A DNA stretch of 64,000 nt, taken from Thermococcus bergensis. Lineage in GTDB: Archaea > Methanobacteriota_B > Thermococci > Thermococcales > Thermococcaceae. Where the stretch lies: positions 496,001-560,000 of the forward strand of contig NZ_JABFNK010000005.1 in NCBI RefSeq assembly GCF_020386975.1, read 5' to 3'. Of this stretch, positions 91-39,926 are shown piece by piece (within the stretch, counting starts at the first letter, position 1; every line of letters begins with the position of its first letter). The position numbers and the translations under genes were made by a program. Under the pieces are notes generated by a model. The model searched no databases and was not told the origin of the DNA. It saw nothing but the letters and a program-made list of their open reading frames with translations.

Positions 91-564
91 CTATTTTATG
101 CTTTTCCATTGTTTATTCCTCCTATTGTCAATGTCAAACTCCTTAACTATTACAATAGTATATGTCTTAGTTATTCCTTCTATTCCTCCTAACTTAAAGG
201 TCAAGAATTCTCTTAGTGAATGGATATCTTTTGTTACTATTTTTGCCATAACATCGTACTCACCGGTTATCTCATACAGTTCTATTATCTCGTCTAACTC
301 TAAAATCTTTTCCATAATTTGCTTTCTCTTCGTGGGGTCAATGTTTATTCCTACAAACGCTATAATTCCATATCCCAACTTCTCGTAATCAATAATAGCG
401 GAGTATTTCTTTATTATCCCATTTTGTTCAAGTTTCTGTATTCTGTACTTAATCGCTGGGACCGTGATTCCCAAGTCTTTAGCCATTTCTGTTAGGGACA
501 TTCTGCAGTTTTTTCTTAACAGTGTCAAAAGGGTAAAGTCTACTTCGTCAATTTTGTTGGGCAA
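91..564 (-). CDS. Lrp/AsnC-family transcriptional regulator
   Basis: 157 residues, the normal length for the family. The N-terminal half is a winged helix-turn-helix (about residues 5-60, with MSLTEMAKDLGITVPAIKYR as helix-turn-helix) and the C-terminal half is a RAM/AsnC effector domain (about 65-150, with GEYDVMAKIVTKD). The family binds DNA as dimers or octamers and usually senses amino acids. The start overlaps the 3' end of the minus-strand aminotransferase gene by 17 bases, so the two were probably co-transcribed and the regulator may control amino-acid metabolism. The ligand cannot be told from sequence. The IS in the upstream gene separates this regulator from the original operon promoter. 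Confidence 0.85.
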   Translation of the reverse strand: MPNKIDEVDFTLLTLLRKNCRMSLTEMAKDLGITVPAIKYRIQKLEQNGIIKKYSAIIDYEKLGYGIIAFVGINIDPTKRKQIMEKILELDEIIELYEITGEYDVMAKIVTKDIHSLREFLTFKLGGIEGITKTYTIVIVKEFDIDNRRNKQWKSIK

Positions 565-1603
565 GTTTATCCCCTCCCTCCTTTAAAAATTCTACAATCC
601 GTTTGGCACCTTCTAAGACTTCTTCATACGAAGAAGAATACGAGATTCTTACGTATCCTTCTCCATTTTTTCCGAATCCTATACCTGGAGTTACTGCTAC
701 TCTTTTCGCTCGTATGAGATCCATTGCAAATTTGTATGAACTTGAATAGTACTCAGAAACATTTAAGAACAGGTAAAATCCCCCTTTTGGAGGTGCATAT
801 GAAATTTTTGGAAGTTTGTGCAGTTTTTTGAGAAGTGCGTCTTTATTTTTCTTGAGCTTTTGTGTTACTTTTCTGGTAATTTTCTTGTAGTTTTCTAGTA
901 AACTTACTGCAGCTTTTTGAATCATCGCAGGAGGACTTGCAATTATATTTTCTTGTATCTTACTTGTAATTTCTGAAAGCCCATCGGGAAGTATTATGAA
1001 TCCCAACCTCAATCCGGTTATGGCAACGGATTTCGAAAAGCTGTTCACTACTATTAGGTTATCCCTAATATCATCAAATTTTAACATGGTATGGTGCTTT
1101 TTTTCAAAAATTATGTTTTCATAGGTCTCATCTGATATTACAACTAAACTATTTTCCTTAGCTATCTCTGCAATTTCCTTGAGGACGTTTTTTGGATACA
1201 CAGCACCCGTTGGATTATTAGGAGTGTTGATTATGAGTGCTTTTGATTTTTTTGCTTGTGTTGCAATGTCTGAGATATTTGGATGAAAATTGCTATCAAG
1301 GGAGTAATATATGGGTTCAGCTCCAACTAAAATTGATTCTGAAGTATAGTTGGGATATCCCGGGTCAGGTAATAAGATCTTATCGCCAGCATCTAATATC
1401 AGTAATAAAGAGAGAAAAAGTCCTTCCATAGCGCCGATGGTAACCACGACATTTTCTGGCTCAATTTTTACACCGTGTCGCTCTTTATAATACTCGGCAA
1501 TTGCACTTCTCAACTCATATAATCCATTATTTTCAGTATAGTTCAAGTACCCATCTCTGACAGCTTTGGCTAGGAGAGAAGCAATAAACTCCTCATTATT
1601 ATA

Positions 1604-2535
1604 ACCCTAGTTCCCATTAGATCGTTAGAGTTATAAGCACTTAAGTCTTTTGGTTGATTGGTGGTTGTTATGAACTTTCAGCAGGAAATCCTGATCATAA
1701 AATCCGAAATCTATCCGATAATCAGCAAACACTACCCGAAAAACACTCGCAGGGAAGTAATCAGCCTCTACGACCTGATAACCTTCGCAATACTAGCCCA
1801 CCTGCACTTCGGAGGAGTTTACAAGCACGCTTACAGAGTCCTAATCGAAGAAATGAAGCTGTTCCCAAAAATCAGGTACAACAAACTAACAGAACGCTTG
1901 AACAGGCACGAAAAACTCCTGCTCCTAGCGCAGGAAGAATTATTCAAAAAACACGCCAGAGAATACGTTAGAATACTGGACTCAAAGCCCATTCAGACCA
2001 AGGAGTTGGCCAGAAAAAACAGGAAGGAGAAGAAGGGTTCTTCAGAAATCATCTCTGAAAAGCCCGCAGTTGGGTTTGTTCCCTCTAAAAAAAGTTTTAC
2101 TATGGGTACAAGCTGACCTGTTACTCTGATGGAAATTTGCTGGCTTTACTGTCTGTTGATCCGGCGAATAAGCATGATGTGAGTGTTGTCAGGGAAAAGT
2201 TCTGGGTGATTGTTGAGGAGTTTTCTGGCTGTTTTCTGTTTTTGGATAAGGGTTACGTTAGTAGAGAACTTCAGGAGGAATTTCTGAGGTTTGGCGTTGT
2301 TTACACGCCGGTGAAGCGGGAGAATCAGGTTAGTAATCTGGAGGAGAAGAAGTTTTACAAGTACTTGTCTGACTTTCGCAGGAGGATTGAGACTTTGTTT
2401 TCGAAGTTTTCTGAGTTTCTTCTGAGGCCGAGCAGGAGTGTTAGTTTGAGGGGGTTAGCTGTCAGGATTTTAGGGGCGATTCTGGCCGTGAATCTGGACA
2501 GATTATACAACTTCACAGATGGTGGGAACTAGGGT
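1604..2535 (+). mobile_element. IS982-type insertion sequence, copy 1
   Basis: 932 bp, bounded by 13-bp perfect inverted repeats (ACCCTAGTTCCCA and its complement) and flanked by a 7-bp target duplication TATTATA (1597-1603 and 2536-2542). A TATA-like GTTATAAG lies just inside the left end, upstream of the transposase start. It interrupts the aminotransferase gene in antisense orientation. Its encoded products are identical to those of copy 2, so transposition was recent. Confidence 0.95.
1670..2532 (+). CDS. IS982-family transposase in two overlapping frames (-1 shift)
   Basis: Frame 1 runs from ATG 1670 to the stop at 2114-2116. Frame 2 carries the rest to 2532. Sliding back one base at the A7 run 2087-2093 (…TCT AAA AAA AGT to AAG TTT TAC) joins them into one protein of about 287 residues, normal for IS982. 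The DDE residues appear as ILDSKP (frame 1), FLDKGYVS and RRIETLFS (frame 2), so the catalytic site needs both frames. All five copies keep the same shift, which argues for programmed recoding or transcriptional slippage rather than chance decay. Confidence 0.85.
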
Positions 2536-2875
2536 TATTATATACCTCTTTAAACTCTTTTCCGAAATCTCCAATTTCCATGTGTATTACATTAGGAATT
2601 GTGTGCGCTAATTTTGAAATCTCTCTTATAAGAGGGTACGGGGTGATGTTAGCCCGGTGAGATATTTTCATTGCATAATCCCCCTTTAGTTGTTATGAAC
2701 ACATTCGAACCTTTATGTTTTTGTTTTTAAAAAAGTATTTAAGAATTCCCTTTAAAATTTTAAAAACCATACAAGAAGGAGAATAGTTTTGTTGAACTTT
2801 TTTAAATTTTTAGGCGATATTAAGTGGATTTTAACATTATCTAGCAAGCCAACGGGCTTGTTGAATCTTATCCCC

Positions 2876-2911
2876 GTTGATATAAGATGTTTGACAACCT
2901 AAGATATCAAC
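2876..2911. promoter_or_regulatory. Inverted repeat upstream of the TRAP operon, likely operator
   Basis: GTTGATAT (2876-2883) and ATATCAAC (2904-2911) form a perfect 8-bp inverted repeat with a 20-base spacer, which itself contains TGT and ACA in mirror positions. It sits about 12 bp upstream of the probable TATA box of dctP, in the otherwise gene-free 2672-3012 region. Placement fits an activator or a repressor site; the protein is unknown. Confidence 0.5.
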
Positions 2912-2922
2912 TTTTTTAAAAT

Positions 2923-2930
2923 TTTATAAG
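2923..2930 (+). promoter_or_regulatory. Probable TATA box of the dctPQM operon
   Basis: TTTATAAG in an A/T-rich tract, with transcription expected near 2953 and the dctP ATG at 3013. It is the best archaeal TATA match in the region, and an inverted repeat lies directly upstream. Confidence 0.5.
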
Positions 2931-3012
2931 AAAAACTTAAAATCCTTTAAATCTTTTAAAAAAATGAACGCCTATGTACACATGTTAAGCTTTGTGCTGG
3001 AGGGATCATAAT

Positions 3013-4095
3013 ATGAGATCAAAGAAAATGCTAAGCCTTGCCTTGTTGTTTTTAGTAGGTCTAGCAGTCGTAGCCAGCGGATGTATTGGAGGTTCTTCAA
3101 GTCAGACTCAAACCCAAGCCACCCAAGAGGCCAAAGAAGAGGCAACAGCACAACCAGAGCTTGTTATTAAGGTTGCAAACTACTATGCCCCCGAGCACCC
3201 AGTTAACGTTGCACTCAACAAAGTCTTCAAGCCTCTTGTAGAATACCGATCAGGAGGGAAGATAAAGGTTGAGATCTACCCAGCAAGCCAACTTGGTGGA
3301 GAAAGAGAGTTCATTGAGGGTGTCATCGAAGGCACAATTGAAATGTGTGTTTCTGGAAACCTCTGGAGCAGATGGGCACCTCAAGTTGACTGGATAGAGC
3401 TCGGTTATGTTTGGAAGAGCCTTGACCAAGCATACAAATTCATGAACGGTCCTGCATTTGACATGTACCGCGAATTCGTTGAGTCAAAGTATGACGCTAA
3501 GTACCTAGGTTCTTTCATTAGAGGGTGGAGAGTAGCTGGAAACAACGTAAGACCTGTAAGGACTCCTGAAGATGCAAAAGGTATAAAATATAGAGTCTGG
3601 GAATCAGAGTGGATAATAAAGACCGTAAAAGCAATGGGATTTGAGCCAGTTGCAATGCCTATTGGTGAAGTTATTTCTGCTCTTGAGACTGGAACTGTTG
3701 ATGGCGCTGGACAGCCAATCTATCAGATATACTATGCGGGCTGGTACAAGTATCTCAAGTACATCTCACTCACAAACCATGTTGTCAACCCAGGTGAGTT
3801 CTGGATTAATGGACAGGTCTGGAGAAAGCTCGGTGAAATGAAGTTTGGTGATGAAACTGGACAAGACATCATTCAGGATGCTGTGTATGCAACAATTCAA
3901 TATATTAACCGAAAGCTCAGAGATGAAGAGCAGATCATTCTTAAGAAGCTTGATGAAGATCCAAACACAGAAATTATCTATGATGTGAAGAGAGAAGCCT
4001 TTGCAGAAAGAGTTAAGGCAGTCCACGAGGAGTTCTTCCAGAGGTATCCAGAAGCCAAGAAGTATTATGACATTGCAATGAAGATTGAGCCTTGA
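3013..4095 (+). CDS. dctP: TRAP transporter solute-binding lipoprotein (DctP family)
   Basis: Extracytoplasmic substrate-binding protein of a TRAP transporter, about 360 residues. The ATG at 3013 is preferred over the upstream codon at 2992 because GGAGGGAT lies before it and it begins the signal peptide MRSKKMLSLALLFLVGLAVV. A lipobox ASGC (Cys about 24) is followed by a Ser/Gln/Thr/Glu-rich linker typical of archaeal surface lipoproteins. DctP-family features follow: HPVNVALNKVFKPLVEYRSGG, YPASQLGGEREFIEGV, and FRGWRV/KGIKYRVWES around the conserved carboxylate-binding arginine region. First gene of an operon with dctQ and dctM. TRAP proteins generally bind organic acids or sugar acids; the ligand here is not known. 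Confidence 0.9.
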   Translation: MRSKKMLSLALLFLVGLAVVASGCIGGSSSQTQTQATQEAKEEATAQPELVIKVANYYAPEHPVNVALNKVFKPLVEYRSGGKIKVEIYPASQLGGEREFIEGVIEGTIEMCVSGNLWSRWAPQVDWIELGYVWKSLDQAYKFMNGPAFDMYREFVESKYDAKYLGSFIRGWRVAGNNVRPVRTPEDAKGIKYRVWESEWIIKTVKAMGFEPVAMPIGEVISALETGTVDGAGQPIYQIYYAGWYKYLKYISLTNHVVNPGEFWINGQVWRKLGEMKFGDETGQDIIQDAVYATIQYINRKLRDEEQIILKKLDEDPNTEIIYDVKREAFAERVKAVHEEFFQRYPEAKKYYDIAMKIEP

Positions 4096-4097
4096 TG

Positions 4098-4123
4098 TGT
4101 TTTCTTTTTTACAACTTTTTAAT
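4098..4123 (+). terminator. T-rich tract after dctP, possible partial terminator
   Basis: The gap between dctP and dctQ contains runs TTTTCTTTTTT and CTTTTT. Archaeal RNA polymerase can terminate at such U-rich tracts, and binding-protein genes are often made in excess of the membrane genes behind them. Attenuation here is an inference. Confidence 0.3.
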
Positions 4124-4153
4124 GTTTTGACTGTGAATTTGGAGGTGAGACAT

Positions 4154-4660
4154 GTGGTTATCCATGTAATAAACAGTATAAGGGCGCAAATTCACAGAAT
4201 CATTGACTGGATATTAGTTATTCTTTTGATCCCCATTACATTGGGAACTTTTATTCAAGTAGTGCTTAGATATGGCTTTCGCAAGACTCTACCCCAAGTA
4301 AATGAAATTGCTACAGTTATGTTTGTCTGGCTCTCAATTATAGCCGCAGCTAAAGTTCTCGACAAGGAGTCGCATCCTGCATTTACGATGGTTGTGGAAA
4401 AAGTCCCTGGAAAAATAAGAGATATTATTCGCTTAATTGATTGGACTGTAATATTTGGAATCTTAGTTATTGTTGTCAAAGGATCACTGAGACTTTTGGA
4501 ATCTGGGCGTGGGCAGACACTCTCAACAATGAATATTTCATATAATTGGGTGTATGCTTCCCTTTTAGTAGGATCTTTGTTTATGATAATAATTTCAGCC
4601 TTCAAGATTCTCGAAATAATTATGCATTTACTGGGCAAAGGAGGTGAAATTAATGCCTGA
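4154..4660 (+). CDS. dctQ: TRAP transporter small membrane subunit (DctQ family)
   Basis: About 168 residues with four predicted membrane segments (beginning near WILVILLIPITLGTF, IATVMFVWLSIIAAA, IIRLIDWTVIFGILV and WVYASLLVGSLFMI), the DctQ topology. The family motif region RKTLPQVNEIATVMFVWLSI is present. The open frame reaches upstream, but GGAGGTGAGA sits five bases before a GTG at 4154, which I take as the start; the ATG two bases earlier is out of frame. It overlaps the dctM start. It scaffolds the large DctM subunit. Confidence 0.85.
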   Translation: MVIHVINSIRAQIHRIIDWILVILLIPITLGTFIQVVLRYGFRKTLPQVNEIATVMFVWLSIIAAAKVLDKESHPAFTMVVEKVPGKIRDIIRLIDWTVIFGILVIVVKGSLRLLESGRGQTLSTMNISYNWVYASLLVGSLFMIIISAFKILEIIMHLLGKGGEINA

Positions 4661-5945
4661 GGCAATGACTGTTCTGCTGATATTCTTAGGAGTCCTTCTT
4701 ATGGCGACCTTATTAAGTGTTCCAATAGCATTTGTGCTTGGGTTAATTGCCATAGTGTTGATTGACTTATACCTCCCAAATCTTGATTTATCTTTCGTCA
4801 TAGCACGTAGAATGATAACGGGAATGCAAATTTACACACTCTTAGCAATTCCCTTTTTCATGCTCGCTGGAGAAATCATGAGTAGATCTGGGATTGTCGA
4901 GGATATAATTGAATTTGCAAAGTACTTTGTGGGTAGCATAAAAGGAGGACTAGCTCATGCAACAGTAGTTGCAAACATACTCATGGCAGGTTTGAGTGGA
5001 TCAGCTGTAGCTGATGCTGCTGCAATTGGTTCTCTTACAATCCCGGCAATGGAAAAAGCAGGTTACGGAAAGAGATTTGGAACTGCAATAGCTACTGCTG
5101 CAGCTCTCATTGGACCGGTAATTCCCCCAAGCATTCCAATGATCATACTTGGCATAGTTGCCCAGATATCAATCCTGGATTTGTTCATAGGAGGGATAAT
5201 TCCAGGACTGCTGATGGGACTTGGGCTTATGACATATGTTTACTTTATCTCCAAAAAGAGGGGCTATCCTGCAGCTGGAAGACCACCAGCATTTTTGCCT
5301 GTTCTTAAAAAGACAATTTGGGCAATACTTCTTCCAATAATCATAGTGGGTGGAATAAGGTTTGGTGTATTTACACCTACTGAGGGTGGAGCAATAGCGG
5401 CTGTATACGCTGCAGTGATTGCAAAACTGGTATACAAAATGGAATGGAAAGAATACAAGGAAGCCTTAGTTGGTGCAGCAGAAAGCACTGGCGTAGTCTT
5501 GCTGGTCTGTGGAATGGCGATGGTACTTACCTGGGCGCTCACAGTTCTTCAGGTACCTCAACTTATTATAGGCATGTTCCAAAGCTTTACAACAAACAAG
5601 TACGTATTTCTCTTTATTATCAACGTATTCCTGTTCATAATGGGAATGATTGTCGATCTTACACCAAACATATACCTACTAGCTCCATTGCTCTTCCCAG
5701 TTGCTAAGGCTTATGGAATTAATCCAGTTCACTTTGGTGTTGTTATGTCGGTAAACCTGACAGTTGGACTTCTTACACCACCAGTAGGAACGGTATTATT
5801 GCTGGGTTCAGCAATGTCCAAGATAAAACTTGAAGAGCTGGTAAAGGAACTAATTCCAATTTATGTGATATACTTTGGAATACTGTTGGTAATAACATAC
5901 ATTCCGGAGCTTGTTATGATTCCTGTACGCGCTCTAGGAGGGTGA
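4653..5945 (+). CDS. dctM: TRAP transporter large permease subunit (DctM family)
   Basis: 430 residues and about 11-12 hydrophobic segments, as expected for the channel subunit of a sodium-driven TRAP transporter. Characteristic stretches are AIPFFMLAGEIMSRSGI, GLSGSAVADAAAIGSL, AALIGPVIPPSIPMI and the second-half counterpart MSVNLTVGLLTPPVGTVL. GGAGGTG precedes the ATG at 4653, and the start overlaps the dctQ stop, so the two are translationally coupled. A catabolic gene begins six bases after its stop. Confidence 0.9.
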   Translation: MPEAMTVLLIFLGVLLMATLLSVPIAFVLGLIAIVLIDLYLPNLDLSFVIARRMITGMQIYTLLAIPFFMLAGEIMSRSGIVEDIIEFAKYFVGSIKGGLAHATVVANILMAGLSGSAVADAAAIGSLTIPAMEKAGYGKRFGTAIATAAALIGPVIPPSIPMIILGIVAQISILDLFIGGIIPGLLMGLGLMTYVYFISKKRGYPAAGRPPAFLPVLKKTIWAILLPIIIVGGIRFGVFTPTEGGAIAAVYAAVIAKLVYKMEWKEYKEALVGAAESTGVVLLVCGMAMVLTWALTVLQVPQLIIGMFQSFTTNKYVFLFIINVFLFIMGMIVDLTPNIYLLAPLLFPVAKAYGINPVHFGVVMSVNLTVGLLTPPVGTVLLLGSAMSKIKLEELVKELIPIYVIYFGILLVITYIPELVMIPVRALGG

Positions 5946-5950
5946 TATAA

Positions 5951-6988
5951 ATGGAAGCAATAAGAGTTCGTAAGGAAGACTTATACAGATTTTGTGTTGA
6001 GGCTTTCGTTAAAGCAGGTGTTCCAAAGGAAGAAGCGGAAATAGTTTCGGAGCATTTAGTTGAGGCAAGCTTGAGGGGAGTTGACTCCCACGGAGTTATA
6101 AGAGTCCCCTACTACATAGAGGGTATCAGAAAAGGCTTGGTAAATGCTAGATCCAACATTACGATAGTGAAAGAAACTTCAGTATCAGCATTACTAGATG
6201 GAGGAAATGGATTAGGACAAGTGGTAGCAAAAAAAGCTATGGAGATAGCTATTGAAAAAGCAAAGATTTCTGGGGTTGGCTTAGTTGGTGCGAGAAACCT
6301 CGGTCACGTTGGAATGCTCGCTTATTACACCAAAAGGATTGCAGAGAATAAACTTATTGGGTTTGCATTTGCAAATGGTCCCGCTTTGGTCGCTCCATGG
6401 GGAGGAGCTGAGAGAGTCTTTGGTACAAATCCCTTGAGCTATGCCTTCCCAACCAAGGATAAGCCAATAATCCTAGACATAGCAACGAGTGCAACCGCTC
6501 ACTTCAAGATAAAGGTTGCTATGATTAGAGGAGAAGAACTTTCTCCAGGATTAGCTCTAGACAAGGACGGAAACCCAACTACAGATCCAAAGAAAGCATT
6601 TGAAGGGATTTTACTTCCATTTGGTGCCCATAAGGGATATGGGTTCTCACTTCTAGTCACATTAATGACTGTACCCCTCATTGGCGGGACGTTCGATAAG
6701 GACGTTGTGCTTCATGCCTCAACTCAAGGAGGATTCTTCATAATGGCGATAGACCCAACTCTGTTCAGGGAGTACGAAGAGTTCATTAAGGATGTGCAGA
6801 GAGTTGTCGATGTTATTAAATCAACAAAGCCAGCGTCTGGGTTCAAGGAAGTCTTGCTCCCTGGGGAGATTGAGGAGAAAGTGGCAAAAGAGAGGACAGA
6901 AAAGGGCATTCCAATTGACCAAGAGGTGTGGGAGAGCTTTGAAAAACTTGCTAAAGAGCTTGGAATAAAGCTTCCTGAGACTCTCTGA
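5951..6988 (+). CDS. Malate/L-lactate dehydrogenase family (Ldh_2) oxidoreductase
   Basis: 345 residues, full length for the Ldh_2/YlbC family of NAD(P)-dependent 2-hydroxyacid (or imine) dehydrogenases, which are unrelated to Rossmann lactate dehydrogenases. Visible hallmarks: VDSHGVIRVPYYIEGIRKG with the catalytic His region, GARNLGHVGMLAYYTKR, FGTNPLSYAFP, ILDIATSATAHFKI and GAHKGYGFSLLV. It sits between dctM and a second, structurally unrelated 2-hydroxyacid dehydrogenase. Family members act on malate, sulfolactate, ureidoglycolate, 2,3-diketo-L-gulonate or cyclic imines; the substrate here should be what the TRAP system brings in or a product of it. Confidence 0.8.
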   Translation: MEAIRVRKEDLYRFCVEAFVKAGVPKEEAEIVSEHLVEASLRGVDSHGVIRVPYYIEGIRKGLVNARSNITIVKETSVSALLDGGNGLGQVVAKKAMEIAIEKAKISGVGLVGARNLGHVGMLAYYTKRIAENKLIGFAFANGPALVAPWGGAERVFGTNPLSYAFPTKDKPIILDIATSATAHFKIKVAMIRGEELSPGLALDKDGNPTTDPKKAFEGILLPFGAHKGYGFSLLVTLMTVPLIGGTFDKDVVLHASTQGGFFIMAIDPTLFREYEEFIKDVQRVVDVIKSTKPASGFKEVLLPGEIEEKVAKERTEKGIPIDQEVWESFEKLAKELGIKLPETL

Positions 6989-7024
6989 CCTATTTACTTT
7001 CTACTCTTTGGAGGTGACTTTCTA

Positions 7025-8029
7025 ATGGCAAAGTTCAAGGTAGTTGTAACTGACTATGAGTACGAATCTTTAGAAAATGAAAAAAGAGAACTTGAAAAAG
7101 TTGGGGCAGAACTTGTAGCGGTTCAACTGAGATATGCCCAACCAGAAGAAATTATTAAGGTTTGCAAAGATGCCGATGGTCTGATAGTTCAGTATGCAAA
7201 GATAACGAGAGAAGTCATTGAAGGCCTAGAAAAATGTAAAGTCATAGCAAGATATGGGATTGGAGTTGATAACGTTGATGTAAAAGCAGCAACAGAGAAG
7301 GGAATATTCGTTGTAAATGTTCCTGATTACTGTATTGAAGAGGTTTCTGATCACACAATAGCTTTGTTGTTAGCGAGTATAAGAAAAATTAACCTCTATG
7401 ATAAGTCAGTTAAATCTGGAACTTGGGACTATAAAATTGGAAGGCCCATGTACAGGATTAAAGGAAAGACCCTTGGATTAATAGGATTTGGCAAGCTTGC
7501 TAGAAGGGTGGCAGAAAAAATGAAGCCTTTTAGAGTTGAAATAATAGCATATGACCCATACGTAAGCCCGAAAGTAGCAGAGAAATATGGAATAAAGTTA
7601 GTTGACTTTGATGAGCTTCTTAAGAACTCGGACTTCATTTCGATCCATGTTCCATTGACGGAGGAGACATACCACTTGCTCAGCGACAGAGAGTTTGAGC
7701 TTATGAAAGATGGCGTGATTATTGTTAACACTGCCAGAGGACCTATAATTGATGAAAAAGCACTTGTAAAAGCTCTTGAGAGCGGAAAAATTGCATACGC
7801 TGGTCTTGATGTTACAGAAGTTGAACCAATACCCTCTGATAGCCCACTTCTTAAGTTTGACAACGTGATAATTACACCGCACGTGGCTTGGTACTCCGAA
7901 GAAAGCCAAGCAGAACTTCAAACAAAGGCCGCAAGAGGAGTTGCTGAGGTTTTGAGCGGAAAAATTCCAACCTATCTCGTAAACCCCGAAGTTTTAGAGG
8001 TTATAAAGAAAAAAGAAGGAGGTGGGTAA
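7025..8029 (+). CDS. D-isomer-specific 2-hydroxyacid dehydrogenase family protein
   Basis: 334 residues with the family's split substrate and Rossmann domains. The cofactor loop GLIGFGKLARRVAEKMKPF (about 150-170) fits NAD(H). The catalytic triad is present: Arg in VNTARGPIIDEKALV, Glu in GLDVTEVEP, His in ITPHVAWYS. A GGAGGTGA site precedes ATG 7025. It lies in the TRAP operon directly after the Ldh_2 gene. Two dehydrogenases from different folds acting on 2-hydroxyacids suggest oxidation to a 2-oxoacid by one and reduction by the other. Phosphoglycerate or glyoxylate reductase activity cannot be excluded. Confidence 0.85.
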   Translation: MAKFKVVVTDYEYESLENEKRELEKVGAELVAVQLRYAQPEEIIKVCKDADGLIVQYAKITREVIEGLEKCKVIARYGIGVDNVDVKAATEKGIFVVNVPDYCIEEVSDHTIALLLASIRKINLYDKSVKSGTWDYKIGRPMYRIKGKTLGLIGFGKLARRVAEKMKPFRVEIIAYDPYVSPKVAEKYGIKLVDFDELLKNSDFISIHVPLTEETYHLLSDREFELMKDGVIIVNTARGPIIDEKALVKALESGKIAYAGLDVTEVEPIPSDSPLLKFDNVIITPHVAWYSEESQAELQTKAARGVAEVLSGKIPTYLVNPEVLEVIKKKEGGG

Positions 8030-8030
8030 A

Positions 8031-8999
8031 ATGAGTGAAAAAGTACCCTCTGTTGTTGCTTTTGGGGAGACTATGATTAGGCTTTCCACAAAGAACTTTG
8101 AGAGGATTGAGCAGGCCAAGGAATTGGCAATTGGAATTGGAGGTACAGAATCAAACTTTGCCATTGCCTTCGCAAGACTCGGAGGAAGGGCAGCTTGGAT
8201 TAGCAAAGTGACAAACAACCCCCTCGGAAGATTCATTGCAAACAAAATCAGAGAACACGGCGTGGATGTCTCACACGTAATCTGGACAAACGATTACAGG
8301 GTTGGACTGTACTTTATCGAATTCGGCAAAAAACCAAGACCCACGCAAGTCATTTATGACAGGAAAAACTCGGCCATAGCAAACATCACTCCAAATGAAG
8401 TAGATTGGGAGATTCTAAAAGATTATGACGCCTTCCACACTACCGGAATTACTGTCGCACTCAGCGAAAACTGCAAGAAAGCTGTGGAGATTGGAATCAG
8501 CAAAGCGAAAGAATTCGGCACAAGAGTTTCCTTCGACGTTAACTACCGCTCCAAACTCTGGTCGCCAGAAGAAGCATTTAAAGCTTTAGACCCAATACTG
8601 AGGAAGGTTGACATCCTCCTCGTTACAAAAGACGATGCAAGAAATGTTCTCAAGGTTGACGGCACTTACGAGGAGATTATTCACACTCTTGCAGAGAGGT
8701 ACAGCCCGGAGGTTACTGTTCTTACACTAGGTTCAGAAGGAGCAATGGCCCTCAAGGACGGTAGGATTTACAAGGCTGAGCCGTATGAGCTTGAAGTTGT
8801 TGACAGGATTGGCGCCGGAGATGCATTTGATGCGGGTTTCGTGTATGAGTATCTCCGTAGTGGAGATGTTCAGAAGGCTCTTGAGTTAGGAGTTGCAATG
8901 GCGGCTTATGCTCACACTATTCCGGGAGATGTGATGTTTGTTACCAAGGATGAGATCGAATTCATACTCCAGCAGAAAGTCCATGACGTAGTGAGGTGA
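8031..8999 (+). CDS. PfkB-family sugar kinase, 2-keto-3-deoxygluconate kinase-like
   Basis: 322 residues; ribokinase/PfkB fold. The N-terminal VVAFGETMIRLS and the GIGGTESNFAIAFARLGG signature resemble KDG kinases, and the C-terminal signature DRIGAGDAFDAGFVYEY carries the catalytic Asp and anion hole. The ATG at 8031 follows GGAGGTGGG and begins two bases after the previous stop. KDG kinases phosphorylate 2-keto-3-deoxygluconate or related 3-deoxy-2-keto sugar acids. The next gene is a KDG-aldolase-like enzyme, so the pair probably forms a kinase-aldolase step producing pyruvate and a triose phosphate. Confidence 0.8.
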   Translation: MSEKVPSVVAFGETMIRLSTKNFERIEQAKELAIGIGGTESNFAIAFARLGGRAAWISKVTNNPLGRFIANKIREHGVDVSHVIWTNDYRVGLYFIEFGKKPRPTQVIYDRKNSAIANITPNEVDWEILKDYDAFHTTGITVALSENCKKAVEIGISKAKEFGTRVSFDVNYRSKLWSPEEAFKALDPILRKVDILLVTKDDARNVLKVDGTYEEIIHTLAERYSPEVTVLTLGSEGAMALKDGRIYKAEPYELEVVDRIGAGDAFDAGFVYEYLRSGDVQKALELGVAMAAYAHTIPGDVMFVTKDEIEFILQQKVHDVVR

Positions 9000-9004
9000 T
9001 GAAA

Positions 9005-9895
9005 ATGAGTTTTGAGGGCATTTTTCCTCCTGGAGTTACTCCTTTTACAAAGGATGACGAAGTTGATCTAGCTAAGCTAACGGAATATCTGGACTTCCTG
9101 ATTAAGGGTGGAGTTCATGGTTTATTCTTGCTTGGGACGAATGGTGAGGGGCCATTGTTGACGTTTGAAGAGAAAAAGGAAGTCATAAGGACTGCTGTAG
9201 AACACGTGAACGGTAGAATTCCAGTAATAGCTGGTACCGGGGGCACTAGCACAAAAGAGACCGTAGAACTTAGCAAATATGCAGAAAAAGTTGGTGCAGA
9301 TGGGGTACACGTTGTAACCCCATACTATTATCCAATTACCCAAAATGGGATAATAAAGCACTACAAGAAAATTGCAGAAAGCGTTGAGCTACCAGTCATA
9401 ATCTACCACATCCCTCCAAGGACAGGAGTAAAAATTGACATAGGCACACTGCTAAAGTTGGCAGAAGTTCCAAACATTGTTGGTGTAAAGGACAGCTCAA
9501 AAGACGTTATTTGGTTTTATAATGCTATTACGGCAGTTAGAGAGAAGAAGCCTGAGTTTGTGTTCTTTAGCGGGAGTGATGCACTGATATATACTCACTT
9601 GAGTTTGGGGGCTAATGGTGCTGTTTCGGCAGTCGCTAATGTATTTCCAGAGGTTGTTGTTGAACTTTTTGAGGAGTTCAAAAAAGGAAACCTTGCCAAG
9701 GCAAAAGAAATTCAAGACGAAGTTCTGAAAATCAGAACAGCCCTTCAGAAAGGGTTCCCATATATGGCTGGAGTTAAAGGAGCATTAAAGCTCAGAGGGA
9801 TGGACTTTGGTGAGCTTAGAAGTCCTCTTGAATCACTAGACAATGAGGGCTTAAAAGAACTTGAAAGAAGGCTAAGAGAGTTGAACCTCCTTTGA
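9005..9895 (+). CDS. DapA/NanA/KDG-aldolase family class I lyase
   Basis: About 296 residues, a (beta/alpha)8 Schiff-base lyase of the dihydrodipicolinate synthase superfamily. Visible: GLFLLGTNGEGPLLT, the catalytic tyrosine in VIIYHIPPRTG (about 135) and the Schiff-base lysine in IVGVKDSSKD (about 162). The start at 9005 (MSFEGIFPPGVTPF) is six bases after GAGGTG; an ATG at 8999 overlapping the previous stop is an alternative. In this operon, beside a KDG-kinase-like gene, cleavage of a 2-keto-3-deoxy (phospho)sugar acid into pyruvate and an aldehyde is likelier than lysine synthesis. Confidence 0.85.
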   Translation: MSFEGIFPPGVTPFTKDDEVDLAKLTEYLDFLIKGGVHGLFLLGTNGEGPLLTFEEKKEVIRTAVEHVNGRIPVIAGTGGTSTKETVELSKYAEKVGADGVHVVTPYYYPITQNGIIKHYKKIAESVELPVIIYHIPPRTGVKIDIGTLLKLAEVPNIVGVKDSSKDVIWFYNAITAVREKKPEFVFFSGSDALIYTHLSLGANGAVSAVANVFPEVVVELFEEFKKGNLAKAKEIQDEVLKIRTALQKGFPYMAGVKGALKLRGMDFGELRSPLESLDNEGLKELERRLRELNLL

Positions 9896-9920
9896 TTTTT
9901 TAAATTTTCGGGTGGTAACA

Positions 9921-10586
9921 ATGGTGATTAGGCTTCCATTTGGAGAAAGTTTGTATGAAGTTAAGCCATCAAAAATTATAGGATTAGGTAAGAATTACCT
10001 AGCTCCAAATGAGCCGAAAGAAAACGCTCCAGAAGAACCAATTGTGTTTTTAAAGCCTCCTTCATCTCTTATAGGTCCAGAAGAGACAATAATTATCCCG
10101 AAGAAAAGCAAAGAAGTCCATCACGAGGTAGAGCTTGGTGTGATTATAGGGAAGAGAGGAAAGAACATTCCACAGGAAGAAGCTTTCGATTACATTCTTG
10201 GTTACACGGTTGTTCTGGACATAACTGCGAGAGATCTAATTCAAAGGGCTATAAGCAAAGGCTTGCCTTGGGCAGTTGCCAAGGGATTTGATACATTTAC
10301 TCCAATAGGTCCGAGAATTGTTGGAAAAGAAGAGCTAGATCCTTCAGATTTAGAAATTGGTCTCAAAGTCAATGGGGAAGTTAGACAGCTTTCTAAGACG
10401 AGCAGAATGATATTCAAGATAGATGAGATAATCGAATATGTTTCGAGCATAATGATGCTTGAGCCGGGAGATATCATTGCCACTGGAACTCCAGAAGGTG
10501 TCGATTTATTGAAACCCGGAGATGTTGTTGAAGGCTGGATAGAAGGAATTGGTGTCCTAAAAGAGAAAGTCGATATTGAAAAATGA
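9921..10586 (+). CDS. Fumarylacetoacetate hydrolase (FAH) family protein
   Basis: 221 residues, the size of single-domain FAH-fold enzymes. The metal ligands are apparent in HHEVELGVIIGKRG and the following VVLDITARDLIQ; KGFDTFTPIGP and the closing TGTPEGVDLLKPGDVV are diagnostic. Members hydrolyse C-C bonds of acylpyruvates, decarboxylate oxaloacetate or dehydrate/hydrolyse keto-deoxy sugar acids. GGGTGG precedes ATG 9921. It sits between the aldolase-like and OYE-like genes, so it probably processes a diketo or enol acid in the same pathway. Confidence 0.8.
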   Translation: MVIRLPFGESLYEVKPSKIIGLGKNYLAPNEPKENAPEEPIVFLKPPSSLIGPEETIIIPKKSKEVHHEVELGVIIGKRGKNIPQEEAFDYILGYTVVLDITARDLIQRAISKGLPWAVAKGFDTFTPIGPRIVGKEELDPSDLEIGLKVNGEVRQLSKTSRMIFKIDEIIEYVSSIMMLEPGDIIATGTPEGVDLLKPGDVVEGWIEGIGVLKEKVDIEK

Positions 10587-10626
10587 ACTTGTTACGCGGA
10601 TGACTCATCGTTGGGAGGTGATAGAA

Positions 10627-12558
10627 ATGGCGAAGTTCGAGAACTTGTTCAAGCCCTTAAAGATTGGAAAAGTTGAGATAAAGAACAGAGTTGTTATGCC
10701 ACCAATGGTAATGTGTTACGGTGGCCCAAATGGGGAAGTTACAGACCAAGTGGTCGCCCACTACGAAGCTAGAGCTAAGGGAGGGGCTGGTCTCATTATT
10801 GTTGAAGCCACCTGTGTCCACCCATCTGGCAAAGGGTTCGAAGGCGGACTTAGCATTCACACAGACTCACACATTCCCGGGTTTGCAAGACTTACCGACG
10901 CTGTCAAGAAATATGGGGCTAAAGTGGCTCTGCAGATTTTCCACGCTGGAATACAAGCTCATGTAGACCAACCGGTTGGGCCAAGTGCCATCGGAAGGAA
11001 AATTATCCCACCCGTGAAAACACCGAGAGAATTAACCACTGAAGAAGTAGAAGAAATGATTGAGGCATTTATTCAGGCAGCAGTAAGGGCAAAGAAAGCT
11101 GGTTTTGACATGGTGGAAGTTCACGGAACTCACGGATATTTAATATGTGAGTTTCTCTCACCGCTAACAAACAAAAGGACCGATGAGTATGGTGTGGATA
11201 GAGTGCTATTTGCCGAGAAAATCGTCAAAGGAATAAAAGAGCGCTGTGGTAAGGACTTCCCGGTGATATTCAGGCTGTGTGCAGATGAGTTCCTTGAAGG
11301 GGGCATCACAGTAGAATATGCCAAGGAAATTGCTAAAAGACTTGAAAAAGCAGGTGTAGATGCATTCAACATAACTGGGGGAAACTATGATACCTGCGAT
11401 CACATAATTCCTCCTGTATATTATGAGAAGCAGGGCTACTTCCTTGAACTTGCGGCAGAGATAAAGAAAGTTGTTAATGTCCCAGTAATTAGCGGAGGGT
11501 TCATTAGAGACCCAGAAGTTGCTGAGGAACTTATCAAGGAAGGAAAAGTAGACGCAGTCTTTGTTGGAAGACAGTTAATAGCTGACCCAGAGTGGGCAAA
11601 CAAAGCTAAACATGGAGCTGTTGAAGACATTAGACCATGTATTGCCTGCAACGAAGGATGTATACACAGAATCTTTAACGACAGACCAGTGGTATGTGCA
11701 GTTAACCCATTGAAAGGATTTGAATACAGGTACTTATCAGAGGAAGAAATTCCAAAAGCCGAAAAACCAAAGAAGATTCTGGTCGTTGGAGGAGGCGTTG
11801 GTGGCCTTGAATTTGCTAGAGCAGCTAAAATTAGGGGTCATGAAGTAATCTTGGTAGAGAAATCCGATAGACTCGGAGGCTTGCTGTGGCTGGCAGGGGC
11901 GCCAGAGTTCAAGAGGGACAGGATTTACAAACTAATTAAGTGGTACGAAGAGCAGATGAAGAAGCTGGGAGTTGAAGCTAAGTTAAACACAGAAGCAACT
12001 CCTGACCTTATTAAAGAACTTAAGCCCGACATAGTGGTTTTGGCAACTGGGTCTGAGCCCATAGTTCCAAAGATCCCTGGAGTTGAGCACACAATACTTG
12101 CAGATGACGTCCTCCAAGGAAAGGCAGAGGTCGGAGAGAAAGTTGTTATAATTGGTGGCGGAATGGTCGGGTGTGAAGTTGGAATAGAACTTGCCAAGAA
12201 AGGAAAGAAAGTAACCATTGTTGAGGCTCTTGATGCAATAGTTCCAAATGAACCGGCAATAAATCAAATGGGTATCCACAAGCTTCTCGCAAAGTACAAT
12301 GTTGAGGTTAGAACTAACAGTCCGGTAATAGGAATCCACAAAGACCATGTAGAGGTAGTTGATAAGCTCGGCAGGAGAACAGCAATTGAAGCAGATACCA
12401 TTATTCTTGCAGTTGGAAGAAAAGCTCGCTTGAATGAAGATCTCTTGAAAGCAGCTCAAGAGGTTGCACAAGATGTCTTTGTACTTGGAGACGCTAAAGA
12501 ACCACGTAAGATAATAGATGCCATAAGAGAAGGCTTCTGGACAGCTATTGCTTCCTGA
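10627..12558 (+). CDS. Old-yellow-enzyme/FAD/Fe-S reductase (2,4-dienoyl-CoA or 2-enoate reductase family)
   Basis: 643 residues starting at ATG 10627 after GGGAGGTGATAG. Residues 1-360 form an FMN TIM barrel (VEVHGTHGYLICEFLSPLTN, VISGGFIRDPEVAEEL, DAVFVGRQLIADPEW). A 4Fe-4S site follows (CIACNEGC, then Cys in RPVVCAVNP), then an FAD-binding domain (LVVGGGVGGLEFARAAKIRG) with an inserted NAD(P) domain (VVIIGGGMVGCEVGIELAKKG). This is the architecture of 2,4-dienoyl-CoA reductase, 2-enoate reductase and trimethylamine dehydrogenase. It is the last gene of the TRAP operon and would reduce an unsaturated acid or oxidise an amine. The true substrate is unknown. Confidence 0.85.
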   Translation: MAKFENLFKPLKIGKVEIKNRVVMPPMVMCYGGPNGEVTDQVVAHYEARAKGGAGLIIVEATCVHPSGKGFEGGLSIHTDSHIPGFARLTDAVKKYGAKVALQIFHAGIQAHVDQPVGPSAIGRKIIPPVKTPRELTTEEVEEMIEAFIQAAVRAKKAGFDMVEVHGTHGYLICEFLSPLTNKRTDEYGVDRVLFAEKIVKGIKERCGKDFPVIFRLCADEFLEGGITVEYAKEIAKRLEKAGVDAFNITGGNYDTCDHIIPPVYYEKQGYFLELAAEIKKVVNVPVISGGFIRDPEVAEELIKEGKVDAVFVGRQLIADPEWANKAKHGAVEDIRPCIACNEGCIHRIFNDRPVVCAVNPLKGFEYRYLSEEEIPKAEKPKKILVVGGGVGGLEFARAAKIRGHEVILVEKSDRLGGLLWLAGAPEFKRDRIYKLIKWYEEQMKKLGVEAKLNTEATPDLIKELKPDIVVLATGSEPIVPKIPGVEHTILADDVLQGKAEVGEKVVIIGGGMVGCEVGIELAKKGKKVTIVEALDAIVPNEPAINQMGIHKLLAKYNVEVRTNSPVIGIHKDHVEVVDKLGRRTAIEADTIILAVGRKARLNEDLLKAAQEVAQDVFVLGDAKEPRKIIDAIREGFWTAIAS

Positions 12559-12721: not shown

Positions 12722-12835
12722 ATGATGAACCTTAGAGAGCTCGTGAGAAAGAAGCTTATTGAGGGAAAAATAGGCTTAGAGGACTTTCCATTGCTTTTGC
12801 TCTGCGGATTGGCATCTTGCAGTGATAGGGAGTGA
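12722..12835 (+). CDS. 37-residue small protein of unknown function
   Basis: A short frame with a near-perfect ribosome site (GGGGGAGGTGATTTAG before ATG ATG) and its own TATA box reads MMNLRELVRKKLIEGKIGLE and continues with a hydrophobic LLLLCGLASC patch, ending at TGA 12833-12835. The N-terminal half is basic and helix-like. The C-terminal part carries two cysteines four residues apart. No family is recognised. It stands alone between the TRAP operon and tRNA-Ser. The translation signals are stronger than expected for a chance frame, but the gene is not proven. Confidence 0.5.
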   Translation: MMNLRELVRKKLIEGKIGLEDFPLLLLCGLASCSDRE

Positions 12836-12877
12836 GACCTTTACTTTTTACATTTTTGCTCCTCAAAACCAGCAAGG

Positions 12878-12885: not shown

Positions 12886-12911
12886 CTGGTCTCTTTTACT
12901 AAAAACCGAGC

Positions 12912-12998
12912 GCCGGGGTAGCCTAGCCAGGGAAGGCGGTGGACTCGAGATCCACTGGGCGTTTGCCCGCCGGGGTTCAAATCCCCGCCCCGGCGCCA
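12912..12998 (+). tRNA. tRNA-Ser (CGA)
   Basis: 87 nt, class II. Acceptor GCCGGGG pairs with CCCCGGC, discriminator G, and CCA is encoded. The anticodon arm GTGGA-CTCGAGA-TCCAC gives anticodon CGA. The long variable arm TGGGCG-TTTG-CCCG and the T arm CGGGG-TTCAAAT-CCCCG are intact. No intron is seen. Confidence 0.97.
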
Positions 12999-13027
12999 TA
13001 GCCGAGCAAACAAAAAAAGAGAAAAAA

Positions 13028-27743: not shown

Positions 27744-27785
27744 GTACTTTATTTTTCATAACAATAGCTGATGGGGGGATCCACT

Positions 27786-28787
27786 TTGAAAAAATTAATT
27801 AATAGCCCTGAGACCGTAGTTAAAGAGATGTTAGAGGGAATGGCAGCAGCTTATCCAGAGTTAATAAAAGTTCATTTCAACCCAAATTTCATCTACAGAG
27901 CAGATGCACCAGTAAAGGGAAAAGTGGCACTGATTTCCGGAGGAGGGTCTGGGCACGAACCACTGCACGGAGGGTATGTGGGCAAAGGAATGCTGGATGC
28001 CGCCTGTCCAGGCGAGGTATTTACCTCCCCAACCCCTGATCAAATGTACGAAGCTGCTAAGACAGTCGAGGGAGGAGAAGGGATTCTATTTATTGTGAAA
28101 AACTACACAGGAGACGTCATGAATTTTGATATGGCAGCCGACTTGTTAAAGGCAGAAGGATACAAAGTTGAGTCAGTAATCATTGCAGATGATGTGGCTG
28201 TAGAAGAGTCTCTTTACAGTGCCGGAAGAAGAGGAGTTGGAGGAACGGTTTTTGCTGAGAAAATTGGAGGAGCAGCTGCAGAAAGAGGATGGTCTCTTGA
28301 GGAAGTCAAACGAGTTGTTGAAAAAGTTGCCAAGAATGTCAGGTCTATTGGTATTGCTCTGACTCCCTGTACTGTTCCAGCAGCCGGAAAACCCACATTT
28401 GAATTGTCGGAGGATGAGTTTGAATTTGGAATTGGAATTCATGGAGAACCGGGTAGAAAAAGAATGAAAATGAGACCCGTTGACGAGATAGTGCAGATGA
28501 TGATGGATGCAATTTTGCAGGATATGCCCTTGGAAAAAGGAGACGAAGTTGCATTGTTAGTGAACGGAATGGGAGGAACTCCACTTATGGAACTCTTCAT
28601 AGTAAACAGGAAAGTTGCTCAAATTCTCGATAACATTGGAGTCAAACGATATAAAACACTTGTCGGTAATTACATTACATCATTGGAAATGCAGGGGACT
28701 TCAATAACAGTTCTGAAGCTTGACGACGAGCTTAAAGAATTGCTTGACGACCCTGTCTTAACTCCTGCATTAAGGTGGAAAGCCTAG
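27786..28787 (+). CDS. dhaK: PTS-dependent dihydroxyacetone kinase, DhaK subunit
   Basis: About 333 residues. DhaK binds dihydroxyacetone covalently through a His as a hemiaminal. [15 protein letters not shown] (about 55-70) contains the phosphate-type loop and His, and [35 protein letters not shown] and [10 protein letters not shown] (with the substrate-binding His) are standard. I prefer the TTG at 27786 (MKKLINSPE) because GGGGGATCC lies just before it; the ATG at 27771 lies next to the ribosome site itself. First gene of dhaKLM. Confidence 0.95.
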
Positions 28788-28821
28788 CGTTTCCATTTAA
28801 ATTTTTATTTGGGTGATCAAA

Positions 28822-29457
28822 ATGGAATATACCTTAGAATATTTTGATAGATTTGTAAAAATCTATGCAAAACATCTCTCTGAAAATAAGGAATATTTAA
28901 CTCAACTTGATGCTGCAATCGGAGATGGGGATCATGGAATAAATATGGATAGAGGAGCAAAAGCAGCTTTAGAGCGCCTGAAATCTATGGATCCTAAAAC
29001 TCCAGGGGAGCTGTTAAGGACTGTGGGAATGGCTCTTCTCAGCACTGTTGGTGGGGCAGCTGGACCCTTGTACGGAACAGTATTTATGAAAATGAGTATT
29101 GCCATCGGAAACAAAGAGAAAATTGACGACAAAGAACTTGTAAAAGCATTAGAACAGGCATTACTCGGAATAAAAACCCTTGGAAAAGCAGAGGTTGGCG
29201 AAAAAACAATGGTGGATGTCTGGGAGCCAGTTGTCGAGTTCTTAAAAGAGAAAGTGCTTAAGGAAGGATATGAACTTCCAGATATATGTGAAGAGGTTAT
29301 TAAATTGGCGGAGGAAAGAATGAAAGCTACAATACCGATGATAGCAAGGAAGGGTAGGGCATCTTATCTGGGGGAAAGAAGCATTGGTCATCAAGATCCA
29401 GGAGCTACGAGCTCGTACTTGTTCTTTAGGAGTCTTTGTGAAGCACTGCAGAGGTGA
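28822..29457 (+). CDS. dhaL: Dihydroxyacetone kinase ADP-binding subunit DhaL
   Basis: 211 residues from ATG 28822. DhaL holds a tightly bound ADP that DhaM rephosphorylates in PTS-dependent kinases. The Mg/ADP-binding aspartates are visible in LDAAIGDGDHGINMDRG, followed by STVGGAAGPLYGTVF, GEKTMVDVWEP and SIGHQDPGATSSYLFF. It follows dhaK by about 34 bases with GGGTGATC as ribosome site. Confidence 0.95.
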   Translation: MEYTLEYFDRFVKIYAKHLSENKEYLTQLDAAIGDGDHGINMDRGAKAALERLKSMDPKTPGELLRTVGMALLSTVGGAAGPLYGTVFMKMSIAIGNKEKIDDKELVKALEQALLGIKTLGKAEVGEKTMVDVWEPVVEFLKEKVLKEGYELPDICEEVIKLAEERMKATIPMIARKGRASYLGERSIGHQDPGATSSYLFFRSLCEALQR

Positions 29458-29463
29458 CTCTAA

Positions 29464-29853
29464 GTGCTCGCTCTTTTAATTCTTTCTCACAGTCCTGATG
29501 TCGCAAAGGGAGTTAGAGATATTTGTCTTCAGATGACATCAGGTGAAGTGGTTATAGAAGCTATTGGAGGAACAGCAGATGGTCAGTTGGGAATAGACGC
29601 GGAGAAAGTCTTTAATTCTTTACAAGAGCTTACAAAAAAGTATGAGGGAGTTGTTATCATTGGGGACATTGGAAGTACAATACTTGCAGCCAAAAATGCA
29701 ATTAACCTTCTTGGAGTGCCAAAAAATGTTAAAATTGCAGATGCGCCTCTGGTGGAGGGGGCTATAGTTGCTTCTGTAGAGGCTTCCCTTGGGTCATCTT
29801 TAGATGAAGTAATTAAAAAAGCAGAAGAAGTTAAGTTTTTGAGTAAGCTTTAG
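29464..29853 (+). CDS. dhaM: DHA kinase phosphotransferase subunit DhaM (EIIA-Man-like domain)
   Basis: 129 residues, a stand-alone EIIA-Man-like domain. It starts with GTG at 29464, six bases after dhaL. The active His lies in ALLILSHSPDVAKGV (about residue 9). GGTADGQLGIDAEKVF and VIIGDIGSTILAAKNAI match DhaM. In bacteria DhaM receives the phosphoryl group from HPr; here the only visible donor is the HPr/EI pair encoded on the facing strand. Its 3' end overlaps the ptsI end by 23 bp. Confidence 0.92.
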   Translation: MLALLILSHSPDVAKGVRDICLQMTSGEVVIEAIGGTADGQLGIDAEKVFNSLQELTKKYEGVVIIGDIGSTILAAKNAINLLGVPKNVKIADAPLVEGAIVASVEASLGSSLDEVIKKAEEVKFLSKL

Positions 29854-32603: not shown

Positions 32604-32641
32604 TTTTCTCACCAACCATTATTGTGTTCACTATGGTCGAA

Positions 32642-33331
<690 letters not shown>

Positions 33332-33367
33332 TTACTGCATTTCGAAGATAAAAGAAAAAGCAAAACC

Positions 33368-36486: not shown

Positions 36487-36605
36487 TTTTAGCATCCTCC
36501 GTTTTCAATTGGTGCAATCCCTTAAAAAAATCTTCATTTTTATGATTGCTCATTGTTTGTTTAACCCTAAAAAAGAAATTAAATATTAAAAAGGAAATCT
36601 TTTTA

Positions 36606-39066
<2,461 letters not shown>

Positions 39067-39079
39067 TCAGATCACCTAC

Positions 39080-39883: not shown

Positions 39884-39926
39884 TTCTATACACCTCGGTA
39901 AAGTTTTCAAAACTATTATAGTTCCA

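What the first reader, a model, noticed from the sequence alone, without database searches (positions are those of the whole stretch)
3013..12558. Nine-gene TRAP operon encoding uptake and an unassigned catabolic route
A complete TRAP transporter is followed in one direction by Ldh_2, a D-2-hydroxyacid dehydrogenase, KDG-kinase-like, KDG-aldolase-like, FAH-family and OYE/Fe-S reductase genes. Taken together they suggest import of an acidic sugar or hydroxy acid, C2 oxidation, phosphorylation, cleavage to pyruvate, and reduction of an unsaturated side product. I know of no described pathway with exactly this set in Thermococcales.
Basis: partly seen in the sequence, partly recalled or inferred. 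Interest (0 to 1): 0.65.

Follow-up and report, generated by a model that had tools for sequence, protein, structure and literature searches.

The report
Swappable sugar-acid uptake operon, hyperthermophile archaeon
A heat-loving archaeon carries nine adjacent genes that most likely import an acidic sugar derivative and break it down to pyruvate, and comparison with relatives shows that the importer and helper enzymes around a two-gene core have been exchanged as modules, with no known sugar-acid dehydratase found in this genome.

Summary
The nine genes are real, intact and co-directional (3013-12558): DctP, DctQ, DctM, Ldh_2, a CtBP-type D-2-hydroxyacid dehydrogenase, KDG-kinase-like PfkB, DHDPS-family aldolase, FAH-family protein and a BaiCD-like OYE/Fe-S flavoenzyme. 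The full set was seen only here: this DctP has no close homologue in 93 other Thermococcales genomes searched. The kinase-aldolase core is shared with five. In the closest relative (G077) the same site, promoter and lipoprotein signal peptide lead into an unrelated tripartite tricarboxylate transporter, then the core, then an Fe-alcohol dehydrogenase. Homology breaks at the SBP lipobox and resumes at the kinase, so the locus is modular and reassorted. In G084, G086, G092 and L006 the core sits in a Thermotoga-type inositol operon. Similar kits occur on bacterial plasmids. UxaA, UxuA, IlvD/Edd and mandelate-racemase-type sugar-acid dehydratases were searched for in this genome and not found, so KDG is probably reached by redox at C2 or imported nearly ready-made. 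A testable candidate is 3-deoxyaldonate (metasaccharinate), which forms from heated sugars. The substrate is not identified.

The parts
2673..3012 (+). Shared promoter/leader region upstream of dctP
   Evidence: Homologous to the region upstream of tctC in G077 (L027), 75% over 2546-3093
3013..4095 (+). DctP, TRAP solute-binding lipoprotein; signal peptide and lipobox 3013-3093 shared with G077 TctC
   Evidence: Pfam DctP 1.4e-60; ligand Arg motifs GWR and KYRV; nearest solved chain 4pbq, GulP with L-gulonate; homology with G077 ends at 3093
4154..4660 (+). DctQ small permease
   Evidence: Pfam DctQ 1.3e-22; GTG start after GGAGGTGA
4644..5945 (+). DctM large permease
   Evidence: Pfam DctM 3.5e-112; TIGR00786 414 bits, above cut-off
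5951..6988 (+). Ldh_2 dehydrogenase, expected L-2-hydroxyacid type
   Evidence: Pfam Ldh_2 2.9e-118; best solved relatives 2x06 L-sulfolactate dehydrogenase and 1v9n malate dehydrogenase; SHGVIR motif
7025..8029 (+). CtBP-type D-2-hydroxyacid dehydrogenase
   Evidence: 2-Hacid_dh_C 1.5e-65; 54% to a Priestia protein annotated C-terminal binding protein; ARG, GLDVTEVEP and PHVAWY motifs
8031..8999 (+). KDG-kinase-like PfkB (core)
   Evidence: KDG/KDGal kinase model 356 bits, below cut-off 440; substrate residues aligned with solved KDG kinases; 89% to G077
9005..9895 (+). DHDPS-family class I aldolase, KD(P)G-aldolase-like (core)
   Evidence: DHDPS 7.5e-86; Schiff-base Lys in GVKD and Tyr in YHIPPRTG; YagE and DapA relatives score alike
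9921..10586 (+). FAH-family protein (FAHD1/HpaG-like), second copy in this genome
   Evidence: FAA_hydrolase 3e-67; 73% to G000:C5:19334-19993, the copy of a gene found in 83 of 94 Thermococcales
10627..12558 (+). OYE/Fe-S/FAD reductase, BaiCD-like
   Evidence: Oxidored_FMN 2e-79; BaiCD model 542 bits, below cut-off 825; C-x2-C-x3-C-x11-C and HGTHGY
91..564 (-). Lrp/AsnC-type regulator divergent from the operon, conserved in G077
   Evidence: ORF; 95.7% syntenic block 1-1593; regulation of the operon is inference
548..2672 (-). Divergent aminotransferase gene split by an insertion sequence at about 1594-2545; intact in G077
   Evidence: Aminotran_1_2 9e-60; two homologous blocks in G077; 392-aa ORF in G077
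12912..12998 (+). tRNA-Ser(CGA), right edge where homology with G077 resumes
   Evidence: ARAGORN; 100% over 12908-13010

Best explanation
This is a modular sugar-acid catabolic operon that funnels into a 2-keto-3-deoxygluconate (KDG) kinase/aldolase core. Proposed order: (1) DctPQM imports a sugar-derived monocarboxylate; (2) Ldh_2 and the CtBP-type dehydrogenase, expected to have opposite stereochemistry, act on C2 and deliver a 2-keto-3-deoxy acid (KDG or a C4 epimer) without a dehydratase, for example from the two C2 epimers of a 3-deoxyaldonate; (3) the kinase makes the 6-phosphate; [quoted passage not shown] (5) the FAH protein and OYE are accessory (keto-acid tautomerase/decarboxylase or repair; flavin-linked reductant balance). 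Shown here: gene content, motifs, synteny, module exchange, no match to four dehydratase families. Inferred: substrate, reaction order, direction of the dehydrogenases, phosphorylation before cleavage. The general KDG-funnel reading is about 65% likely; the dehydratase-free C2-redox version as written about 40%; the 3-deoxyaldonate substrate alone about 20%.
For: Family hits; kinase residues that bind KDG in solved kinases conserved; the same kinase-aldolase pair follows a UxaA-type dehydratase in inositol operons of sister genomes, where KDG is the expected intermediate; no UxaA, UxuA, IlvD/Edd and only enolase among MR/MLE proteins in G000; TRAP or GntP with Ldh_2 and/or CtBP dehydrogenase and KDG kinase plus KDPG aldolase on bacterial plasmids; in G077 another carboxylate transporter (TTT) feeds the same core from the same promoter and leader; metasaccharinic acid forms from sugar at 90 C, pH 7.45 (PMC13280894).
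Against: The Priestia kit carries a broken UxuA frame, so at least one such kit was built around a dehydratase. The aldolase keeps the DapA-type arginine and passes the dapA model cut-off, so its substrate is open. The genome is 96.1% complete and other dehydratase families exist. The roles of FAH and OYE are unexplained. No ligand, transcript or growth data.
Confidence: 0.4

Rival explanations
1. Scavenging of KDG itself or of 4-deoxy-5-keto-uronate (DEH) from alginate or pectin: the transporter brings in the nearly finished intermediate; the dehydrogenases reduce the aldehyde or dispose of the products (pyruvate to lactate, glyoxylate or hydroxypyruvate reduction).
For: No dehydratase found; a TTT transporter takes part in alginate-oligomer uptake in Vibrio (PMC13390454), and G077 pairs a TTT with the same core plus an Fe-alcohol dehydrogenase of the YqhD type that could act as a DEH reductase.
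Against: Known bacterial DEH reductases are SDR or beta-HAD enzymes, not Ldh_2 or CtBP-type (PMC8778563); two stereo-opposed hydroxyacid dehydrogenases are not needed; polysaccharide lyases were not searched for in this genome.
Confidence: 0.22
2. C2 epimerisation of a hexonate (such as gluconate/2-ketogluconate/mannonate) by the two dehydrogenases, followed by a dehydratase of an unrecognised family.
For: The Priestia operon has UxuA (broken frame) with Ldh_2, KDG kinase, Eda and CtBP dehydrogenase; the Marinovum cluster has a lactate-racemase-like (Lar_N) protein next to TRAP, CtBP dehydrogenase and KDGal kinase; nearest solved DctP binds L-gulonate.
Against: No UxuA, UxaA, IlvD/Edd or sugar-acid MR/MLE dehydratase in G000.
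Confidence: 0.18
3. The kinase-aldolase core is a bystander left from the older locus, and the acquired genes (TRAP, Ldh_2, CtBP dehydrogenase, FAH, OYE) serve a different acid, such as a hydroxy- or keto-dicarboxylate or an enoate.
For: OYE is BaiCD/2,4-dienoyl-CoA-reductase-like; FAH is HpaG-like; Azospirillum has TRAP, CtBP dehydrogenase and FAH together without a KDG kinase. In G077 the FAH-OYE block is replaced as a unit.
Against: Kinase-aldolase remain in frame, overlapping and intact between the new blocks; the FAH is a copy of a resident gene; the OYE homologue in G089 is stand-alone; Priestia, Thermus and Marinovum clusters also join these dehydrogenases to a KDG-type kinase.
Confidence: 0.15

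Closest known systems
L-gulonate pathway of Haemophilus influenzae (GulPQM TRAP; PMC5788505)
   Same: TRAP-fed, two dehydrogenases, KDG kinase, KDPG aldolase; GulP (4pbq) is the nearest solved DctP by sequence
   Different: Gulonate pathway has the dehydratase UxuA; none found here. Its dehydrogenases are GulD and UxuB, not reported as Ldh_2 or CtBP-type; its DctP is only distantly related
Thermotoga-type inositol operon (IolM, IolN) in sister Thermococcales G084, G086, G092, L006
   Same: Orthologous kinase-aldolase core (71-87% and 57-75%)
   Different: Has IolM, IolN, UxaA-like dehydratase and zinc dehydrogenases, no TRAP, Ldh_2, CtBP, FAH or OYE
G077 allele of the same locus (TTT + core + Fe-ADH)
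   Same: Site, promoter, SBP signal peptide, core, flanks
   Different: TctCBA instead of DctPQM plus two dehydrogenases; Fe-ADH instead of FAH and OYE
Plasmid sugar-acid clusters of Thermus oshimai, Priestia megaterium, Marinovum algicola
   Same: Overlapping combinations of TRAP, Ldh_2, CtBP-type dehydrogenase, KDG/KDGal kinase and KDPG aldolase
   Different: Eda-type instead of DHDPS-type aldolase; none holds both FAH and OYE; none has a proven substrate that I know of
Haloarchaeal semi-phosphorylative Entner-Doudoroff branch (KdgK)
   Same: Nearest kinase model is the haloarchaeal KDG/KDGal kinase
   Different: Haloarchaeal clusters have sugar dehydrogenase and galactonate dehydratase; here no dehydratase was found

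Membership tests
DctP-type TRAP transporter | Solute-binding protein, small and large permease encoded together | tested here: met
   DctP, DctQ, DctM above cut-offs, adjacent
DctP-type TRAP transporter | Conserved ligand-carboxylate arginine (SiaP Arg-147 position, PMC4646407) | tested here: met
   KYRV motif at residue 192 of DctP, aligned with the Arg region of 4pbq; role
Entner-Doudoroff-type KDG route | KDG kinase with substrate residues conserved | tested here: met
   Alignment with 2afb, 1v19 and 2v78 and motifs
Entner-Doudoroff-type KDG route | KDG kinase: score above the curated equivalog cut-off | tested here: not met
   356 bits against 440: KDG-kinase-like, exact substrate open
Entner-Doudoroff-type KDG route | KD(P)G aldolase activity | not testable with these tools
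   DHDPS family with Schiff-base Lys; KDG-aldolase and DapA models both match
Entner-Doudoroff-type KDG route | Sugar-acid dehydratase making KDG | tested here: not met
   UxaA, UxuA, IlvD/Edd absent, MR/MLE only enolase in G000; genome 96.1% complete
L-gulonate (GulPQM) pathway | UxuA dehydratase | tested here: not met
   No UxuA in G000
Inositol (IolM/IolN) pathway | IolM and IolN in the operon | tested here: not met
   Not among the nine genes; present in G084
Alginate/pectin DEH pathway | DEH reductase of SDR or beta-HAD type | tested here: not met
   None in the operon; families per PMC8778563; rest of genome not searched
BaiCD bile-acid flavoenzyme | Score above the curated cut-off | tested here: not met
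   542 bits against 825: same architecture, not that enzyme
L-sulfolactate dehydrogenase | Score above the curated cut-off | tested here: not met
   312 bits against 500

The most novel reading that the evidence does not exclude
The operon is a pathway for 3-deoxyaldonic (metasaccharinic) acids that form abiotically when sugars are heated: TRAP uptake, oxidation of both C2 epimers to KDG by stereo-complementary dehydrogenases, then kinase and aldolase. That would be a genetic route for eating heat-made sugar wreckage in a hyperthermophile.
Probability: 0.18. Interest if true: 0.82.

Novelty: new variant of a known kind. Interest (0 to 1): 0.5.

Why it matters
Thermococcales are usually described as peptide and neutral-glycan fermenters (my own knowledge), and a TRAP-fed sugar-acid operon would extend that. 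The locus also shows how such operons evolve: promoter, leader peptide and kinase-aldolase core remain while whole transporter families (TRAP or TTT) and redox enzymes are exchanged. If the dehydratase-free reading holds, a single ligand screen would identify a missing entry route into the archaeal Entner-Doudoroff branch.

Tried and rejected
Genome-collection scan with the kinase gave one locus only. Plasmid search with DctP gave nothing above 60% identity and its best listed places are about 30-35%, so no donor could be named. The Priestia kit first looked dehydratase-free, but reading the unannotated stretch showed a broken UxuA-like frame, so that argument was dropped. A composite transposon was considered because insertion sequences flank the locus; the left and right elements differ and the left one sits inside the aminotransferase, so it was rejected. 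The three other Thermococcales TRAP loci are distant and, where the downstream genes could be read (G047, G084), sit beside pyruvate/acetoin-dehydrogenase-like genes, so they do not help. Sigma-70/terminator scans are not informative for an archaeon and were near the shuffle mean. Paper searches for saccharinic-acid gene clusters and for a Thermococcales TRAP/KDG operon found nothing relevant. Structure prediction was not run: the fold of each family is not in doubt and would not give the ligand.
Full report
OBSERVATION. The window is G000:C5:496001-560000 of a 2.08 Mb assembly; that it is Thermococcales is read from the related loci. Most gene starts follow a strong ribosome-binding site; the HADH/kinase genes and the kinase/aldolase genes abut or overlap. 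T-rich stretches after dctP and after the aldolase gene might thin the transcript.

DISTRIBUTION. The DctP has no close relative in 93 other Thermococcales genomes; only three distant ones (31-33%) exist, and in the two whose downstream genes were read (G047, G084) they lie next to pyruvate/acetoin-dehydrogenase-like genes. Ldh_2 is single-copy here, with one 67% homologue in G081 and about 40-45% homologues elsewhere. The CtBP-type dehydrogenase is closer to a Priestia plasmid protein (54%) than to Thermococcales homologues (at most about 45%). The OYE has a 77% homologue standing alone in G089. The FAH is a second copy of a gene present in 83 of 94 genomes. The operon is therefore a mosaic of parts with different histories.

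THE LOCUS IS MODULAR. G077 has the same neighbourhood (95.7% identity upstream, 93% downstream), but at this site carries TctC-TctB-TctA, KDG kinase (89%), aldolase (77%) and an Fe-alcohol dehydrogenase. Homology runs through the aminotransferase start, the promoter, the ribosome-binding site and the SBP signal peptide, stops at 3093 just after the lipobox, resumes at 8011 near the kinase start, fades within the aldolase (9833), and resumes at tRNA-Ser (12908). Two unrelated binding proteins thus share one promoter and leader peptide. The core itself is only 83% identical at DNA level, against 93-96% for the flanks, and patchy (69-97% by 150-bp windows), so it too has recombined or evolved faster; it is not simply the vertically inherited remainder.

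WHAT THE CORE DOES. In G084, G086, G092 and L006 the same kinase-aldolase pair follows genes whose products in G084 score above the curated cut-offs for scyllo-inosose 3-dehydrogenase IolM (548 against 450) and 3-dehydro-scyllo-inosose hydrolase IolN (346 against 245), with a UxaA-type dehydratase (orthologous genes in the others). That route is expected to enter the kinase as KDG. The kinase's best solved relatives are KDG kinases. Scores stay below the strict equivalog cut-offs for the kinase and KDG-aldolase models, so the names are 'KDG-kinase-like' and 'KD(P)G-aldolase-like'; the aldolase does pass the dapA cut-off.

HOW THE WINDOW'S VERSION COULD REACH KDG. Four sugar-acid dehydratase families were searched for in this genome and not found (UxaA, UxuA, IlvD/Edd, MR/MLE only enolase). 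The operon instead has two hydroxyacid dehydrogenases of families that, by established knowledge, act on opposite stereoisomers at C2. A substrate that gives KDG by simple C2 oxidation is 3-deoxygluconate/3-deoxymannonate (metasaccharinate), whose two C2 epimers would need exactly such a pair. Metasaccharinic acid lactone was prepared from turanose at 90 C, pH 7.45, and in the heat-sterilised glucose fluids listed in the passage read it is the most abundant of the measured acids (PMC13280894). This is an inference, put at about 0.2. Direct KDG/DEH uptake, or C2 epimerisation with an unrecognised dehydratase, remain open.

PARALLELS IN BACTERIA. Thermus oshimai pTHEOS01, Priestia pBP01R2b, Marinovum pMaD2, Geobacillus and another Priestia plasmid, Azospirillum p5 and Alkalihalophilus pBpOF4-02 hold overlapping combinations of these families (identities). 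The ingredients are known; the full set with DHDPS-type aldolase, FAH and OYE was seen only here, within the collections searched. The Priestia kit contains a broken UxuA-like frame (recognised by eye), so it cannot be used as proof of a dehydratase-free route.

LIMITS. No ligand, transcript or phenotype. The nearest solved DctP (4pbq, L-gulonate) is too distant for transfer. Bacterial chromosomes could not be searched with these tools beyond plasmids. Genome completeness is 96.1%.

Noticed in passing
L028:2943-11759; also L029, L030, L006: Sister Thermococcales carry what looks like a Thermotoga-type inositol catabolic operon (IolM and IolN over NCBIfam cut-offs in G084, UxaA-like dehydratase, KDG kinase, aldolase); I found no paper describing it in archaea in the library searched.
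   Followed up: partly
548-2672: Divergent aminotransferase gene is interrupted by an insertion sequence (about 1594-2545); the gene is intact in G077.
   Followed up: yes
27771-39910: Apparent DhaK/DhaL/DhaM, HPr and PTS enzyme I genes next to glycerol kinase, glycerol facilitator and glycerol-3-phosphate dehydrogenase; the enzyme I gene is split by an insertion sequence at 30791-31665. Read by eye from ORFs.
   Followed up: no
1658-2532, 30791-31665, 36898-37757, 40069-40943, 49631-50505: Five copies of the same two-frame transposase element in 64 kb, suggesting recent insertion-sequence spread.
   Followed up: no
L038:670-5583; L040:10294-15242: Other Thermococcales TRAP loci (G047, G084) are followed by pyruvate/acetoin-dehydrogenase-like E1 alpha and beta genes, a different and apparently unrelated operon.
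   Followed up: no
L054:2313-3026 (-): Unannotated, broken UxuA-like frame upstream of the Priestia Ldh_2-kinase-Eda-CtBP operon.
   Followed up: partly
12723-12836: Small ORF of about 37 codons (MMNLRELVRKKLIEGKIGL...) between the OYE gene and tRNA-Ser; function unknown.
   Followed up: no
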